Assembly: GCF_000025545.1 (NCBI RefSeq)
Contig: NC_013889.1
Span: forward strand, 427,501-491,500
Direction: 5' to 3'
DNA: 64,000 nucleotides
Origin: Thioalkalivibrio sp. K90mix
GTDB lineage: Bacteria > Pseudomonadota > Gammaproteobacteria > Ectothiorhodospirales > Ectothiorhodospiraceae
Every line of letters starts with the position of its first letter. The first letter of the stretch is position 1. The translations under genes and the position numbers were made by a program. Below are positions 12,190-17,505 of this stretch, piece by piece. The notes beneath the pieces were generated by a model that did no database searches, was not told the origin of the DNA, and was given only the letters and a program-made list of their open reading frames with translations.

Positions 12190-12372
12190 GGTGTCGGATT
12201 ACGTTTGGGTTCTTATTGGATCGCGGGGGCCAAAAGGTGAGAAAGTATCCGATCCGCCGCGGCGAGGAAAGAAGCCGGGATACCGGGGGCTTGAGTTTCG
12301 TGACCGTGCCCCCACGGTCACCGGGGCAATCGGTTGACATGCGACCGGGTGCTGACTAGAGTTTCGAAGTGG

Positions 12373-12389
12373 TTTAGACACAGTCTAAA
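12373..12389. promoter_or_regulatory. perfect palindrome upstream of rubrerythrin operon
   Basis: TTTAGAC-ACA-GTCTAAA is a perfect inverted repeat with 7-bp arms, 62 bp before the rubrerythrin start codon. The arms resemble the AT-rich dyads bound by Fur/PerR-family or Rrf2-type regulators, but I cannot assign the regulator. Position and symmetry make it a good operator candidate for the downstream peroxide/iron genes. The 260 bp between xseB and rubrerythrin otherwise show nothing I can name. Confidence 0.6.
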
Positions 12390-12450
12390 TGTCCGGTCTG
12401 CGCAGCGGTCGCATCGGTGTGCAGATCTTAACCAGCAAGAGGAGAGACCC

Positions 12451-12870
12451 ATGGAACTGAAAGGTAGCAAGACCGAAGAAGCCCTCAAGGAGGCCTTTGC
12501 CGGCGAATCGATGGCCAACCGTCGTTACCTGTACTTCGCTTCCAAGGCGGACGTGGAAGGCTACAACGACGTCGCGACCGTGTTCCGTTCCACCGCCGAA
12601 GGCGAAACCGGCCACGCCCACGGTCACCTTGAGTACCTCGAGAGCTGCGGCGACCCGGCCACTGGTCTGGAGTTCGGCTCCACCGCCGCGAACCTGAAGA
12701 CCGCCGTTGCCGGCGAGACCCATGAGTACACCGATATGTACCCGGGTATGGCCAAGACCGCCCGCGACGAAGGCTTCGACGAAGTCGCCGACTGGTTCGA
12801 GACCCTGGCCAAGGCGGAGCGTTCCCACGCCAACCGCTTCCAGAAGGCCCTGGACCAGCTGGACGACTGA
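12451..12870 (+). CDS. rubredoxin-less rubrerythrin
   Basis: A 139-residue four-helix diiron protein of the rubrerythrin family, expected to reduce hydrogen peroxide. The two ExxH metal motifs are at E52/H55 (GETGHAH) and E123/H126 (KAERSH), with further acidic ligands at about E19 and E89. The usual C-terminal rubredoxin domain with its CxxC pairs is absent, so electrons must come from another protein; the Fe-S gene downstream is the obvious candidate. Start chosen by the GAGGAGA ribosome site 9 bases upstream. First gene of a likely four-gene unit behind a palindromic operator. Confidence 0.93.
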
Positions 12871-12895
12871 TCGTCCGGTAGTAACGGAAGCATGC

Positions 12896-12920
12896 GGGGC
12901 CGGTACTCCGGCCCCGTTTT
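12896..12920 (+). terminator. hairpin after rubrerythrin, partial terminator
   Basis: GGGGCCGG-TACT-CCGGCCCC followed by GTTTTCC. The stem is strong but the T-run is short, so it may terminate only part of the transcripts and set rubrerythrin expression above the three downstream genes, or protect the rubrerythrin mRNA end. A second inverted pair, ACGGAACA with TGTTCCGT, follows within the same spacer. Confidence 0.6.
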
Positions 12921-13026
12921 CCGGGAGGTACGGAACAGCCTGTGAAGTCAGCCCTGCGGCTGCGTTCGCACGTTGTTCCGTGTTTCCCTCGAAGCATCGT
13001 CACTGATACGGATACCGGAGGGATGC

Positions 13027-14379
13027 ATGTCTGCGCCGACGCACCAACGTGAAGGAAGTCTGGAAGCCCCGACCCGCCATCCGCTGGACTGGAAGAATCC
13101 CGAGTTCTACAACGAGGAATCGTTGTTCGCCGAGCTGGAGCGGGTCTACGACATCTGTCACGGCTGCCGGCGTTGCGTCAGCCTCTGCAATTCGTTCCCC
13201 ACGCTGTTCGACCTGGTCGACGAATCCGAGACCATGGAGGTCGACGGGGTCGACAGGAAGGACTACTGGAAGGTGGTCGATCACTGCTACCTGTGTGATC
13301 TGTGCTACCTGACCAAGTGCCCCTACGTGCCCCCGCACGAATGGAACGTCGACTTCCCGCACCTGATGCTGCGGGCCAAAGCCGTGCGTTTCCAGAAAGA
13401 GGGAGCGAAGGCCGCGCACAAGTTCATGTCCAGCACCGATACCGTCGGCAAGCTGGCGGGCATCCCGGTGGTCGCCGGCGTAGTCAACGCCGCGAACAAG
13501 AACGGCGCAATGCGGAAGGTGCTGGACAAGACTATGGGCGTGCACCCGGATGCCCCGGTCCCCGAATACCACTCGAGCAAGGGTCGTTCGCGCATGGCGA
13601 AGGTTGCCAAGGGGGTTAGCAACCCCGAGCCGGCCGGTGCCACCCAGGGCAAGGTCGCCCTCTACGCTACCTGCTACGGCAACTACAACGAGCCGCACCT
13701 GGTGGAGGACCTAGTCAAGGTCTTCGAGCATAACGGCATCGAGGTCACCCTGGTCGAGAAAGAGCAGTGCTGCGGCATGCCCAAGCTCGAACTGGGCGAC
13801 CTGAAGGCGGTCGAGTCCGCGAAGGATGCGAACATCCCGGCGATGAAGCGCATGATCGATCAGGGCTATGACATTGTCGCGCCGGTCCCCTCCTGCGTGC
13901 TGATGTACAAGCAGGAATTGCCGCTGATGTTCCCGGACGAGCCCGATGTCGCCGCCGTGCGCGATCGTATCTTCGACCCGTTCGAATACCTGATGGAGCG
14001 CCACAAGGAAGGCAAGCTGAAGACCGATTTCCCCGAGAAGCTCGGCAAGATCGCCTACCACGCGGCCTGTCACCTGCGGGTCCAGAACATGGGCCTGAAG
14101 ACCCGTGACCTGCTGAAGCTCGTGCCGGATACCGAGATCGACGTGATCGAACGCTGCTCCGGGCACGATGGCACCTATGGTGTTAAGAGCGAGTTCTACG
14201 AGACCGCGGCCAAGATCTGCCGCCCGGTGGTGAACCGGGTGCAGAAGGCCGAGTCCGATCACTACTCGAGTGACTGCCCGATGGCCGGGCACATGATCGA
14301 GAACGGGCTGCAGGGCAAGGGCGAGGACAAGGCGCCCGAACACCCGCTGACCCTGCTGCGCCAGGCCTACGGCCTGTAG
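13027..14379 (+). CDS. Fe-S/CCG-domain oxidoreductase, GlpC/HdrD-like
   Basis: A 450-residue soluble protein with two 4Fe-4S cluster sites near the N-terminus (C44, C47, C50, C54 and C87, C90, C93, C98) followed by two cysteine-rich CCG-type domains: EKEQCCGMPKLELG near 258 and the weaker AACHLRV...RCSGHDGTYG around 350-390. This is the layout of GlpC and heterodisulfide-reductase HdrD-like subunits, which pass electrons between flavoproteins, quinones or thiols. GGAGGG precedes the start. Its place between a rubredoxin-less rubrerythrin and a ferritin-like gene suggests it is their electron donor; that is inference. Confidence 0.88.
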   Translation: MSAPTHQREGSLEAPTRHPLDWKNPEFYNEESLFAELERVYDICHGCRRCVSLCNSFPTLFDLVDESETMEVDGVDRKDYWKVVDHCYLCDLCYLTKCPYVPPHEWNVDFPHLMLRAKAVRFQKEGAKAAHKFMSSTDTVGKLAGIPVVAGVVNAANKNGAMRKVLDKTMGVHPDAPVPEYHSSKGRSRMAKVAKGVSNPEPAGATQGKVALYATCYGNYNEPHLVEDLVKVFEHNGIEVTLVEKEQCCGMPKLELGDLKAVESAKDANIPAMKRMIDQGYDIVAPVPSCVLMYKQELPLMFPDEPDVAAVRDRIFDPFEYLMERHKEGKLKTDFPEKLGKIAYHAACHLRVQNMGLKTRDLLKLVPDTEIDVIERCSGHDGTYGVKSEFYETAAKICRPVVNRVQKAESDHYSSDCPMAGHMIENGLQGKGEDKAPEHPLTLLRQAYGL

Positions 14380-14444
14380 CGCCGGGCATCGGCTACTAGC
14401 AACACGATGCGCGCCCGCCGAGGCGCCACGGATGGAGACACGAA

Positions 14445-14747
14445 ATGGCCAGTGACAGCTACCACGAACCCGTCGAGGAACTGAGCGACGAGTCGCGCGG
14501 GATGCATCGCGCCATCGTCTCGCTGATGGAAGAGCTCGAGGCGGTGGACTGGTACCAGCAGCGCATCGATGCCTGCAAGAACGAGGAACTCAAGGCGATC
14601 CTCGCGCACAACCGCGACGAGGAGATCGAACATGCGGCGATGGTGCTGGAGTGGATCCGTCGCCATAACCCGGTGTTCGACCATGAACTGAAAGACAACC
14701 TCTGGTCCGACAAGGACTACACGAAGATGGGACACCACGACCACTGA
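14445..14747 (+). CDS. encapsulated-ferritin-like (EncFtn) protein without targeting tail
   Basis: A 100-residue two-helix ferritin-like protein that closely follows encapsulated ferritin. The ferroxidase residues match: E30, W36 and Y37 in MEELEAVDWY, and E60/H63 in NRDEEIEHAAM, with AILAHNRDEE intact. EncFtn forms ring decamers that oxidise Fe(II) at dimer interfaces. Known members end in a flexible linker and a GSLxxG-type peptide that docks into the encapsulin shell; here the protein stops at GHHDH just after the second helix region, and no encapsulin gene follows. It probably works unencapsulated or with another partner. Confidence 0.88.
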   Translation: MASDSYHEPVEELSDESRGMHRAIVSLMEELEAVDWYQQRIDACKNEELKAILAHNRDEEIEHAAMVLEWIRRHNPVFDHELKDNLWSDKDYTKMGHHDH

Positions 14748-14787
14748 GGGGTCCTGCGGACCAGTCCGACGTGACGGAGGTAGCGAG

Positions 14788-15393
14788 ATGGAGGCAAGTG
14801 TGGACAAGCTGAGTCGAGAAGACCTGTATTCGCTGGAGAAGTACCACGAGCTGCGGCCCCAGTTCCGCAACGAGGTCATGCAGCACAAGCGCAATCGCGT
14901 GGTGCAGGTGGGCCCGGCCGTGACCCTGCACTTCGAGGATCGCAAGACCATGCAGTACCAGATCCAGGAGATGCTGCGGGTCGAGAAGATTTTTGACGCC
15001 GAGGGCATCCAGGACGAGCTGGACGCCTACAACCCGCTGATCCCGGACGGCTCCAACTGGAAGGCGACCATGATGGTCGAGTATCCGGACGTGGACGAGC
15101 GCAAGGTCCAGCTGTCCAAGCTGATCGGGATCGAGCGCAAGACCTACGTGCAGGTCGAGGGCCATGACAAGGTCTACCCGATCGCGAACGAGGATCTGGA
15201 CCGCGAGACTGACGACAAGACCTCGTCGGTGCACTTCCTGCGCTTCGAGCTGACCCCGGAGATGGTCTCCGCCGTGAAATCCGGTGCAGCCATCGCCATG
15301 GGGGTGGAGCACGAGAACTACAGCCACCGGCTGGACGCCGTCTCCGAGGGCACGCGCGAATCCCTCGCGTCCGACCTCGACGCCGTCAACTGA
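14788..15393 (+). CDS. DUF3501 family protein
   Basis: A 201-residue acidic protein that I recognise as DUF3501, a family without known function. It opens LSREDLYSLEKYHELRPQFR, followed by HKRNRVVQVGPAVTLHFEDRKTM and a C-terminal half ending in GVEHENYSH. There is no signal peptide, membrane segment or cysteine motif. It starts 40 bp after the EncFtn-like gene with GGAGG before the ATG and closes the unit, being followed by a strong terminator. Linkage with rubrerythrin and a CCG protein suggests a role in peroxide or iron handling. Confidence 0.85.
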   Translation: MEASVDKLSREDLYSLEKYHELRPQFRNEVMQHKRNRVVQVGPAVTLHFEDRKTMQYQIQEMLRVEKIFDAEGIQDELDAYNPLIPDGSNWKATMMVEYPDVDERKVQLSKLIGIERKTYVQVEGHDKVYPIANEDLDRETDDKTSSVHFLRFELTPEMVSAVKSGAAIAMGVEHENYSHRLDAVSEGTRESLASDLDAVN

Positions 15394-15416
15394 CGCGGCC
15401 TTTTGACCGCTTCACC

Positions 15417-15441
15417 AAAGGCGCCTCCGGGCGCCTTTTTC
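15417..15441 (+). terminator. terminator of the rubrerythrin-DUF3501 unit
   Basis: AGGCGCC-TCCG-GGCGCCT followed by TTTTTCG, 26 bp after the DUF3501 stop. Typical factor-independent terminator. Confidence 0.9.
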
Positions 15442-15467
15442 GTTTCCGGCTTTTGCCGCGGCTGTTC

Positions 15468-15684
15468 AGGCTGGGCCTGGTTCGTCGTCTGGTGTTTACG
15501 ATGGCTTCGTCCGGCCGCCTGCCAAGCGCTCACTCGCGAGCGCGCCGCGAGGTACTTTCTTGCTTGCCCAAGAAAGTACCCAAAGAAGGGCACCCGGATT
15601 CCGCCCGGGAACCTTGCTCCAGGGTCCTCGGGCCGGCGGCGCTGAAACTCGCTGCGCCTTCGGCTCCGCTCAGACAGTCAGCGC
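15468..15684 (+). repeat. dispersed intergenic repeat, copy A
   Basis: About 217 bp that recur in inverted orientation on the other side of the IS110-type gene. Shared blocks include TGGTGTTTACGATGGCTTCG, GGCCGCCTGCC, CCCGGGAACCTTGCTCC, GGCGGCGCTGAAACTCGCTG and CGCTCAGACAGT. Reading frames exist across it but they differ between the two copies by indels, so it is not coding. It looks like a member of a genome-wide repeat family. Confidence 0.75.
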
Positions 15685-15877: not shown

Positions 15878-16870
15878 CTATGAGGTGCAAGGCGTGTCAT
15901 TTCGGGGTTGATACGGGGTTTGCGACTTGAGGACGCCGAAGGCGATGTGCAGGAGCTTGCGCATGGCCGCCCCGATGGCGGCCATCTTGGCTTTGCCCCG
16001 CCTCAGGAGGCGGTGGTACTGGCGCCGCACGTCCGGGTTGTAGCGGGTGGCCACCACAGCGGCCATGTAGAGCGTTTTGCGCAGCCGCCCCGAGCCGGCC
16101 TTCGCCAGCCGCGGGGGTCGCTGGACCGAGGTCCCGGACTCCTGCAGGACCGGTACCAGCCCATGGAACGCCGCCGCCTGCCGAGCACTCGTGAACGCAC
16201 GGCTGCGCAACGTCGCGGCCATCGACGCCGACAACACCCGGCCGATGCCGGGGATGCTCTCCAGCAAGGCCCGATCCCGCTTGAGATGATCATGCGCGTC
16301 GAAGTGATCATCGATCTGCTGCTGTAGCCGACGGTGTTCCTCGCGCAGGGCTTGCAGCACGTTGTCGATCGACGCCTGGGCGAGGGTGTCCTCGCTGAAC
16401 TGCGCCTTCTCCAGGCGATTCTCCTCGCGCCGGATGTCCTCCTCAAGGGCTTCCAGCCGGCTGAGCAGGCGCTTGAGCTCCCGCACCTCGGGCGGCTCGG
16501 GCTGCCAGCGCCGTGGCGCGCGCTCGATGCCGTAACGCGCCAGCATCATGCTGTCCTTGCGGTCGGTCTTGTTGCGCACCCCCATGCCCTGGGCGTGGAA
16601 GCGCACTTGGGCCGGGTTCAGCACATGGACCCGAACCCCCTGCTCATGCAGCCAGTAGGCCAGCGGTTCGTGATAGATGCCGGTGGCTTCCAGATACACC
16701 TGAAGCGTCTCGGGCGCTTCACCCGTGTTGCGCTGCAGCCAGCGCAGCAACTCCGGATACTGGTCCTGGCGGTTCGGGAATACCTTCGGCTTGACCTTGC
16801 CCGCCTCCAGATCCCGGACCCACATGCAGTCGAGCTTGTTCTTGCTGACATCAATGCCGATATGGGCCAT
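15878..16870 (-). CDS. IS110-family transposase
   Basis: A 330-residue, intact IS110-type recombinase. The N-terminal RuvC-like DEDD domain shows D6 in HIGIDVSKN, E in VYLEATGIYHEP (about 61) and the DRKDSMMLARY pair near 103. A coiled-coil linker (about 120-190) leads to the C-terminal transposase-20 domain with ESIPGIG near 206 and the serine-containing KAGSGRLRKTLYMAA near 270. IS110 enzymes use a structured bridge RNA encoded in the element's noncoding end and lack terminal inverted repeats, so I cannot set the ends from one copy. Confidence 0.95.
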   Translation of the reverse strand: MAHIGIDVSKNKLDCMWVRDLEAGKVKPKVFPNRQDQYPELLRWLQRNTGEAPETLQVYLEATGIYHEPLAYWLHEQGVRVHVLNPAQVRFHAQGMGVRNKTDRKDSMMLARYGIERAPRRWQPEPPEVRELKRLLSRLEALEEDIRREENRLEKAQFSEDTLAQASIDNVLQALREEHRRLQQQIDDHFDAHDHLKRDRALLESIPGIGRVLSASMAATLRSRAFTSARQAAAFHGLVPVLQESGTSVQRPPRLAKAGSGRLRKTLYMAAVVATRYNPDVRRQYHRLLRRGKAKMAAIGAAMRKLLHIAFGVLKSQTPYQPRNDTPCTS

Positions 16871-17252: not shown

Positions 17253-17482
17253 CGCTAACTGTCTGAGCGAAGCCGAAGGCGCAGCGAGTTTCAGCGCCGC
17301 CGGCCTGGCGCGTCCGGAGCAAGGTTCCCGGGCGAATCCCGGGCGTGTTTCTTGGGTACTTCTTTGCACGAGCAAAGAAGCCCGTTTTTGATTAAGAACT
17401 GGCGCGGCGCGCTGGCGAGACAGCGCAGGCAGGCGGCCGGACGAAGCCATCGTAAACACCAGATGACGAACCGAGCCTAGCC
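17253..17482 (-). repeat. dispersed intergenic repeat, copy B (inverted)
   Basis: Inverted counterpart of the repeat at 15468-15684, about 230 bp, with the same ordered blocks in reverse complement but with small insertions around the middle. The pair brackets the IS110-type gene. It runs almost to the end of radA and may carry its 3' transcript end. Confidence 0.75.
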
Positions 17483-17505
17483 AGAAGAGGCGGCGGGGCC
17501 AGGCA

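What the first reader, a model, noticed from the sequence alone, without database searches (positions are those of the whole stretch)
12360..15441. Rubrerythrin / CCG Fe-S / EncFtn-like / DUF3501 operon
Four collinear genes bounded by a palindrome at the front and a terminator at the back combine a rubrerythrin that has lost its rubredoxin, a two-cluster double-CCG electron carrier, a ferritin-like iron oxidase and a protein of unknown function. A coherent reading is a peroxide-reducing and iron-sequestering module in which the CCG protein feeds electrons to rubrerythrin and the EncFtn-like protein captures Fe(II). I know of no described system with this set; the role of DUF3501 is open.
Basis: partly seen in the sequence, partly recalled or inferred. 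Interest (0 to 1): 0.85.

Follow-up and report, generated by a model that had tools for sequence, protein, structure and literature searches.

The report
Peroxide-defence operon with shell-less ferritin
This is a known three-gene bacterial peroxide-defence set (rubrerythrin and two partner proteins) that has, in several lineages, gained a fourth gene: a ferritin-like iron oxidase of a kind usually packed in a protein shell, but here with no shell gene found.

Summary
In detail: rubrerythrin (RBR), GlpC-like CCG Fe-S protein (RFO), EncFtn-like protein and DUF3501 lie collinear behind a promoter with a 17-bp palindrome and before a terminator. The claim that no such set is described is mostly wrong: RBR-RFO-DUF3501 was published in 2016 as the 'aerobic-type' rubrerythrin system, and a Dps-containing variant in 2020. 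I found no paper describing the EncFtn-like member. It is a short, tag-less EncFtn ('s-FLP'), and the genome has no detectable family-1 encapsulin; five relatives with a full encapsulin carry a second, tagged EncFtn beside it. EncFtn lies next to DUF3501 in 31 of 34 DUF3501 genomes of the order sample (mostly this genus), but in only 2 of 25 of an even phylum sample, this genome included. The palindrome recurs upstream of RBR (19 of 26, at most 1 mismatch) and not before non-operon EncFtn genes (0 of 64). Likely working: RFO (HdrB/LutA-like) feeds electrons to RBR, DUF3501 (no Cys here, fold of its own) adapts the two, and the shell-less EncFtn oxidises Fe(II). A characterised EncFtn cannot mineralise iron without its shell, so 'iron-sequestering' is doubtful. 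A peroxide signal is unproven; the candidate regulator is Irr/PerR-like and weakly supported.

The parts
12334..12362 (+). sigma-70-type promoter TTGACA-N17-TAGAGT
   Evidence: only promoter-like site in 12200-15600, 10 of 12 matches; shuffles give 0.6 on average, so the match alone is weak; the same promoter-operator layout can be read upstream of RBR in the Thioalkalivibrio loci
12373..12389 (.). operator palindrome TTTAGACACAGTCTAAA, 10 bases downstream of the -10 hexamer
   Evidence: unique exact site in the genome; recurs upstream of RBR in relatives; absent (at most 3 mismatches) before 64 non-operon EncFtn genes
12451..12870 (+). aerobic-type rubrerythrin without rubredoxin domain (RBR)
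   Evidence: PDB relatives 9onm, 4di0, 8fuh (E 6e-74 to 1e-73) and sulerythrin 1j30 (E 4.2e-51)
12895..12916 (+). terminator-like hairpin between rbr and rfo (possible attenuator)
   Evidence: fold of 12890-12925: -23.2 kcal/mol, z -3.45; only 4 T follow, not picked up; some hairpin with a T-rich tail in 13 of 25 RBR-RFO gaps by a loose scan, not all of them homologous
13027..14379 (+). RFO: rubrerythrin-associated GlpC/HdrB-like Fe-S oxidoreductase with CCG domain
   Evidence: model (pLDDT 74) matches LutA 9a6l (E 9.9e-10) and HdrB 8rwn, 5odc
14445..14747 (+). short EncFtn-like ferroxidase (s-FLP type) without encapsulin targeting peptide; ends in GHHDH
   Evidence: ligand set E30, Y37, E60, H63 kept in 80 of 80 relatives
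14788..15393 (+). DUF3501 protein
   Evidence: solved relative 3fjv (E 2.3e-53); model TM 0.91 to 3fjv
15417..15438 (+). intrinsic terminator
   Evidence: fold of 15395-15445: -23.4 kcal/mol, z -4.04, a second small hairpin included

Best explanation
An operon of the known aerobic-type rubrerythrin system (RBR + RFO + DUF3501) that has taken up a short, shell-less EncFtn. Shown from sequence: gene order, families, conserved metal and Fe-S ligands, an operon-specific palindrome just after the promoter, and no detectable family-1 encapsulin in the genome. Inferred: a repressor of the Fur superfamily (Irr/PerR-like) sits on the palindrome and releases under peroxide and/or changed iron or haem status. 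RBR reduces H2O2 at its di-iron site. RFO takes electrons from a donor not identified here (quinol pool or a flavoprotein, by analogy with GlpC/LutA/HdrB) and replaces the missing rubredoxin. DUF3501 has no cysteine here, so it is not itself a thiolate-ligated metal or Fe-S carrier; it most likely is the adaptor that docks RFO to RBR. The EncFtn-like protein works free in the cytosol as a ferroxidase that removes Fe(II), the Fenton partner of the same peroxide, or passes iron on; on its own it should not build a mineral store.
For: RBR, RFO and DUF3501 co-occur in 185 genomes and RBR with DUF3501 in 25 more, with RFO-DUF3501 fusions in Nitrosomonas (PMC5114695, passages). EncFtn lies next to DUF3501 in 31 of 34 DUF3501 genomes of the order sample (misses: G011 has no EncFtn, G031 and G033 are cut at a contig start) and in 27 of 80 loci, 24 of them with all four genes: 13 Thioalkalivibrio, the rest Sedimenticola, Thiodiazotropha, Hydrogenophilaceae and other proteobacterial MAGs. 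The label 'in operon' needs at least 3 changes on well-supported branches and 9 on the best tree. Shell-less: 31 of 37 EncFtn genomes of the order and 17 of 21 of the phylum sample have no family-1 encapsulin match; no encapsulin in the held flanks of 80 loci and no GSL-type tag in 80 of 80; the 5 order genomes with a full encapsulin carry a second EncFtn with SLGIGSLR near its C-terminus beside the shell. Operator: at most 1 mismatch in 19 of 26 RBR upstream regions, 0 of 64 before non-operon EncFtn genes. A Dps plays a like positional part in another published operon (PMC7852563). RFO fold: LutA and HdrB.
Against: No experiment on the window's proteins. In the even phylum sample only 2 of 25 DUF3501 genomes, one of them this one, have EncFtn next to it, so DUF3501 does not need EncFtn; 53 of 80 EncFtn loci show no member of the trio nearby. 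The order sample is one family, 30 of 47 genomes from this genus, so its 31 of 34 is not 31 independent cases. NCBIfam names the EncFtn-like protein encapsulin-associated and it passes that model's cut-off. A hairpin in the 156-bp rbr-rfo gap could separate rbr from the rest. Seven of 26 upstream regions lack a clear palindrome (L075, L081, L098, L105, L110, L114; L084 borderline). The candidate regulator's presence does not track the operon (27 of 34 genomes with DUF3501 against 9 of 13 without). RFO has no hydrophobic stretch suggesting a membrane anchor, so a quinol donor is a guess. The activity of the B. pseudomallei RBR is not settled (PMC12585693, whole record).
Confidence: 0.55

Rival explanations
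1. The EncFtn-like gene is only a co-regulated lodger: it shares the promoter because both are useful in the same stress, but it has no biochemical coupling to RBR, RFO or DUF3501.
For: 53 of 80 s-FLP loci show no member of the trio in the DNA held; the rough ORF clustering gave no partner family common to them (the largest non-operon cluster other than EncFtn and its shadow frames covers 9 loci and was not annotated). DUF3501 occurs without adjacent EncFtn in 23 of 25 genomes of the phylum sample.
Against: The 'in operon' label changed several times on the tree, and the gene sits in the same slot between rfo and DUF3501 in 25 of 27 operon loci (exceptions L098 and L105).
Confidence: 0.35
2. 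The operon answers to iron or haem status, not to peroxide: the regulator is an Irr-like protein and the set manages intracellular Fe(II), RBR included.
For: The Fur-family protein encoded divergently from rbr in L087 (likewise in L109 and L110) is 49% identical to one encoded elsewhere in this genome (L121); both score best with the IrrA and Irr models of NCBIfam, though under the cut-offs, then with PerRA. The variant operator TTTAGAACTATTCTAA resembles the Irr box as I recall it; no call confirmed that consensus.
Against: Best solved relative of L121 is a Fur-family regulator, 5nl9, E 1.2e-18, which I recall as Leptospira PerR. What I read as a di-haem cytochrome c peroxidase gene (recall, no family search) lies next to the regulator gene in L087, L109 and L110, pointing to peroxide.
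Confidence: 0.3
3. The s-FLP is encapsulated after all, by a shell that these searches miss.
For: A 2024 review leaves this open and lists a putative tail signal LFTD(E/N)KPIAHE (PMC11202242, passages). The window protein passes the cut-off of TIGR04535, 'encapsulin-associated ferritin-like protein' (127.2 against 125 bits).
Against: No family-1 shell match in this genome, in 31 of 37 or in 17 of 21 EncFtn genomes; the window protein's tail is DYTKMGHHDH, not that signal; where a full shell exists a tagged paralogue sits beside it in 5 of 5 genomes. The family-2 search also found none, but its control rang nowhere, so it shows nothing.
Confidence: 0.07

Closest known systems
Aerobic-type rubrerythrin system RBR-RFO-DUF3501 (Cardenas et al. 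2016, PMC5114695)
   Same: RBR without rubredoxin, CCG Fe-S oxidoreductase and DUF3501 as neighbours
   Different: here an EncFtn-like gene sits between RFO and DUF3501; the parts read name only an unspecified 'HYP' gene in a figure legend (the figure itself is not held), and the word Thioalkalivibrio does not occur
Dps-RBR-COG0247-DUF3501 operon of Blastocatellia and Sideroxydans (PMC7852563)
   Same: the trio plus a ferritin-superfamily protein; oxidative-stress regulator OxyR beside it in Sideroxydans
   Different: Dps forms a cage and can store iron (general knowledge); here an EncFtn-type protein, which in characterised cases forms a ring without a cage
Short EncFtn (s-FLP), NE0167, PDB 3k6c
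   Same: closest solved relative (E 1.9e-39), same length class, no targeting peptide
   Different: window member lies in the rbr operon and ends in a histidine-rich tail
EncFtn-encapsulin iron store (R. rubrum, PDB 5da5)
   Same: same fold family and ferroxidase ligands
   Different: no targeting peptide and no detectable family-1 shell gene; the shell-associated EncFtn of five relatives form a separate branch (100/99, with a long-branch warning)

Membership tests
Aerobic-type rubrerythrin system (PMC5114695) | rubrerythrin lacking a rubredoxin domain | tested here: met
   139 aa, Pfam match 10-133; one Cys only (sequence)
Aerobic-type rubrerythrin system (PMC5114695) | DUF3501 gene co-located | tested here: met
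   PF12007 E 1.7e-75, same strand
Aerobic-type rubrerythrin system (PMC5114695) | Fe-S oxidoreductase with CCG domain, GlpC-related (RFO) | tested here: met
   COG0247 itself was not searched, and the GlpC models match below their cut-offs
Aerobic-type rubrerythrin system (PMC5114695) | RBR falls in the aerobic-type phylogenetic group | not tested
   no RBR tree built; nearest solved relatives are rubrerythrins 9onm, 4di0, 8fuh (B. pseudomallei, by recall) and then sulerythrin
Aerobic-type rubrerythrin system (PMC5114695) | peroxidase activity | not testable with these tools
   needs protein
Encapsulated ferritin with targeting peptide (FLP-TP) | EncFtn family and ferroxidase ligands | tested here: met
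   ligand positions from PMC5012862
Encapsulated ferritin with targeting peptide (FLP-TP) | C-terminal targeting peptide | tested here: not met
   ends DYTKMGHHDH; no GSL motif in 80 of 80 nearest relatives
Encapsulated ferritin with targeting peptide (FLP-TP) | encapsulin shell in the genome | tested here: not met
   no PF04454 match; control rang in 3 genomes
s-FLP (short EncFtn) | about 95-100 aa, no long disordered tail, no targeting peptide | tested here: met
s-FLP (short EncFtn) | decamer | not testable with these tools
   needs protein
Irr regulator (for the candidate at G000:C1:2592182-2592616) | passes the curated IrrA/Irr cut-offs | tested here: not met
   128.7 of 150 and 119.6 of 170 bits

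The most novel reading that the evidence does not exclude
The shell-less EncFtn is a working part of the rubrerythrin system: a cytosolic ring that couples Fe(II) oxidation to peroxide removal and is recharged by RFO through DUF3501, giving an iron-cycling peroxidase instead of an iron store. This would be a second, shell-independent role for EncFtn proteins.
Probability: 0.12. Interest if true: 0.75.

Novelty: new variant of a known kind. Interest (0 to 1): 0.42.

Why it matters
It gives genomic evidence on a question that a 2024 review leaves open, whether short EncFtn proteins are encapsulated (PMC11202242, passages): in the samples searched, most genomes with an EncFtn have no family-1 shell match. 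It also offers a four-gene context in which to test what EncFtn does without a shell, whether it prefers O2 or H2O2 (stated as unknown in PMC7762939, passages), and what DUF3501 does, a family with a solved structure (3fjv, titled 'unknown function').

Tried and rejected
Family-2 encapsulin search rang in no control genome, so it is not used as evidence. Promoter-like and terminator-like scans are near the shuffle expectation by number; the conserved layout, not the scan, carries the argument. A first motif check of EncFtn ligands gave 0 of 80 because my pattern had the wrong spacing; the corrected count is 80 of 80. Further regulon in this genome: only two 2-mismatch palindromes, while the reversed-pattern control gave 14, so nothing above chance. 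Neighbours of stand-alone EncFtn genes: no shared partner stood out in a rough clustering that also picked up shadow frames. DUF3501 fold search: no match at E <= 0.001 other than its own family. Plasmid search for DUF3501: four Burkholderia records only, not followed. The single-origin reading of the four-gene operon is not supported by the tree, but the tree has 92 columns, many open forks, a bootstrap that had not settled and a long-branch warning, and 9 of the 53 non-operon loci have under 2.5 kb on one side, so a few labels may be wrong. The loci are the best 80 of 572 relatives (of a capped list), so their proportions lean towards the query's kin. Papers: PMC5114695 abstract, passages and section 15; PMC7852563 passages and section 11; PMC7050145, PMC11202242, PMC5012862, PMC7762939 and PMC7760498 passages; PMC12585693 whole record; PMC1347296 not held. 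Other papers: listings only. That EncFtn with DUF3501 is not in print rests (the 5 DUF3501 papers and the 8 EncFtn-plus-rubrerythrin papers do not overlap) and the listing; figures and subscription papers were not searched.
Full report
What is there. Four genes on the + strand: RBR 12451-12870, RFO 13027-14379, EncFtn-like 14445-14747 and DUF3501 14788-15393, behind a promoter TTGACA-17-TAGAGT (12334-12362) and the palindrome TTTAGACACAGTCTAAA (12373-12389), and before a terminator at 15417-15438. Each gene has a purine-rich stretch before its start. The window lies in a 2.99-Mb genome; the nearest loci are Thioalkalivibrio.

The trio is known. Cardenas et al. (PMC5114695; abstract, passages and section 15) describe rubrerythrins without rubredoxin that sit with DUF3501 and an Fe-S oxidoreductase (RFO): 185 genomes with all three, 25 with RBR and DUF3501 only, and fusions of RFO with DUF3501. 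The trio is also reported in Acidihalobacter (PMC7760498, passages), in the predicted mitochondrial proteome of Andalucia (PMC7050145, passages) and, with a Dps gene, in Blastocatellia and Sideroxydans (PMC7852563, section 11). The window's trio meets the sequence features of that system that I tested.

The fourth gene is the variant. The EncFtn-like protein is closest among solved structures to NE0167 of Nitrosomonas (3k6c, E 1.9e-39), the type of the 'short' EncFtn without targeting peptide (PMC11202242, passages). In the order sample (47 genomes, all of one family, 30 of this genus) EncFtn is in 37, DUF3501 in 34 and family-1 encapsulin in 6, one of them (G030) only a fragment. EncFtn lies next to DUF3501 in 31 of the 34; of the three misses G011 has no EncFtn, and G031 and G033 have DUF3501 cut by a contig start. 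The five genomes with a full encapsulin (G013, G029, G035, G036, G037) have two EncFtn genes, one beside DUF3501 and one beside the shell; the latter has SLGIGSLR near its C-terminus in 5 of 5. In an even sample of 398 Pseudomonadota genomes, EncFtn over the cut-off is in 21, DUF3501 in 25 and encapsulin in 7 (6 over the cut-off); 17 of the 21 EncFtn genomes have no encapsulin match. Seven genomes have both EncFtn and DUF3501, and the two genes are adjacent in two of them, this genome and G149. I did not read the EncFtn tails in the phylum sample. So the EncFtn-DUF3501 pair is common in this family and rare elsewhere.

Spread. Of the 80 best-scoring relatives of the EncFtn-like protein (of 572 in a capped list), 27 have DUF3501 in the same run of genes, 24 of these with both RBR and RFO; L054 and L094 show no RBR (both matches begin near a contig end), L105 lacks RFO, and L098 has EncFtn last. 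The other 53 show none of the trio within the DNA held, by tblastn with the window proteins; 44 of those 53 have at least 2.5 kb on both sides. A tree of 106 sequences (92 columns) sets the five shell-associated EncFtn apart (100/99, with a long-branch warning) and needs at least three changes of the 'in operon' label on well-supported branches, nine on the best tree. Gains and losses cannot be told apart, and many forks are open.

The operator. Of 26 upstream regions of RBR (window and 25 loci), 15 have TTTAGACNNNGTCTAAA exactly, L044 has it with one mismatch, and L053, L087 and L109 have TTTAGAANNNTTCTAAA with one mismatch; L084 is borderline (3 of 100 shuffles as good) and six have none. 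Five Thioalkalivibrio loci carry two copies 29 bases apart (in L052 the upstream copy has one mismatch), the upstream one over the promoter spacer (my reading). None of 64 EncFtn genes outside the operon (53, 6 of a sister genus, 5 beside a shell) has it within 250 bases at up to 3 mismatches (0.95 expected from shuffles). In this genome the exact site is unique. Its place just after the -10 hexamer suits a repressor.

The regulator is uncertain. In L087, L109 and L110 a Fur-family gene is divergent from rbr, with what I read as a di-haem cytochrome c peroxidase gene next to it. This genome has a relative elsewhere (L121, 49% identical to the L087 protein). Both resemble Irr and PerR models below cut-off. 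But its presence does not follow the operon: counting matches of 149 bits or more, 27 of 34 genomes with DUF3501 have it, and 9 of 13 without, and G030, G035 and G038, all at least 96% complete, have EncFtn-DUF3501 and not the regulator. I therefore offer it as a candidate only.

RFO and DUF3501. RFO keeps 15 cysteines in 21 of 21 sequences. Its model (pLDDT 74) matches LutA and HdrB, so an electron carrier of that kind is likely; the N-terminal cluster region is poorly modelled. DUF3501 is modelled well (pLDDT 88.6) and matches only 3fjv at E <= 0.001. It has no cysteine in 20 of 22 sequences, so it cannot generally be a thiolate redox carrier. Residues 135-143 are predicted poorly, yet E135, D136 and R139, and the neighbouring K144-S146, are invariant in the alignment: a candidate docking loop. 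With the published fusion to RFO and the RFO-less archaeal pairs, an adaptor between RFO and RBR is the simplest role, by inference.

The EncFtn-like protein. Its ferroxidase ligands, by the numbering of PMC5012862, are kept in 80 of 80 relatives. R. rubrum EncFtn oxidises iron but cannot mineralise it without the shell. Without a detectable shell here, iron storage is not the expected role; Fe(II) oxidation or hand-over is. Against this, NCBIfam files the protein under an 'encapsulin-associated' model whose cut-off it just passes. Whether O2 or H2O2 is the oxidant is stated as unknown for EncFtn (PMC7762939).

Verdict.

Noticed in passing
window 15878-16870 (-), with 15459-15683 and 17253-17492: An ORF that I read (by recall, no family search) as an IS110-type transposase lies just downstream of the operon, between inverted copies of a repeat spanning about 225 bases (aligned blocks 84-89% complementary).
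   Followed up: no
window 12929-12983: A long stem-loop (-34 kcal/mol, z -5.98) in the rbr-rfo gap; a 12-base core of it was found only in L040 and L041 among 13 Thioalkalivibrio loci, and no further copy in the window.
   Followed up: partly
L087, L109, L110, L114, upstream of RBR: A gene that I read (recall) as a di-haem cytochrome c peroxidase lies upstream of the operon on the opposite strand in four loci outside Thioalkalivibrio.
   Followed up: no
L040-L052, EncFtn-like C-termini: All 13 Thioalkalivibrio EncFtn-like proteins end in a histidine-rich tail (such as GHHDH), which may bind metal.
   Followed up: no
G001, G003, G004, G005, G006, G010 (another genus of the family): Six genomes have a short EncFtn without a DUF3501 or encapsulin match, so the protein has a use outside the operon.
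   Followed up: no
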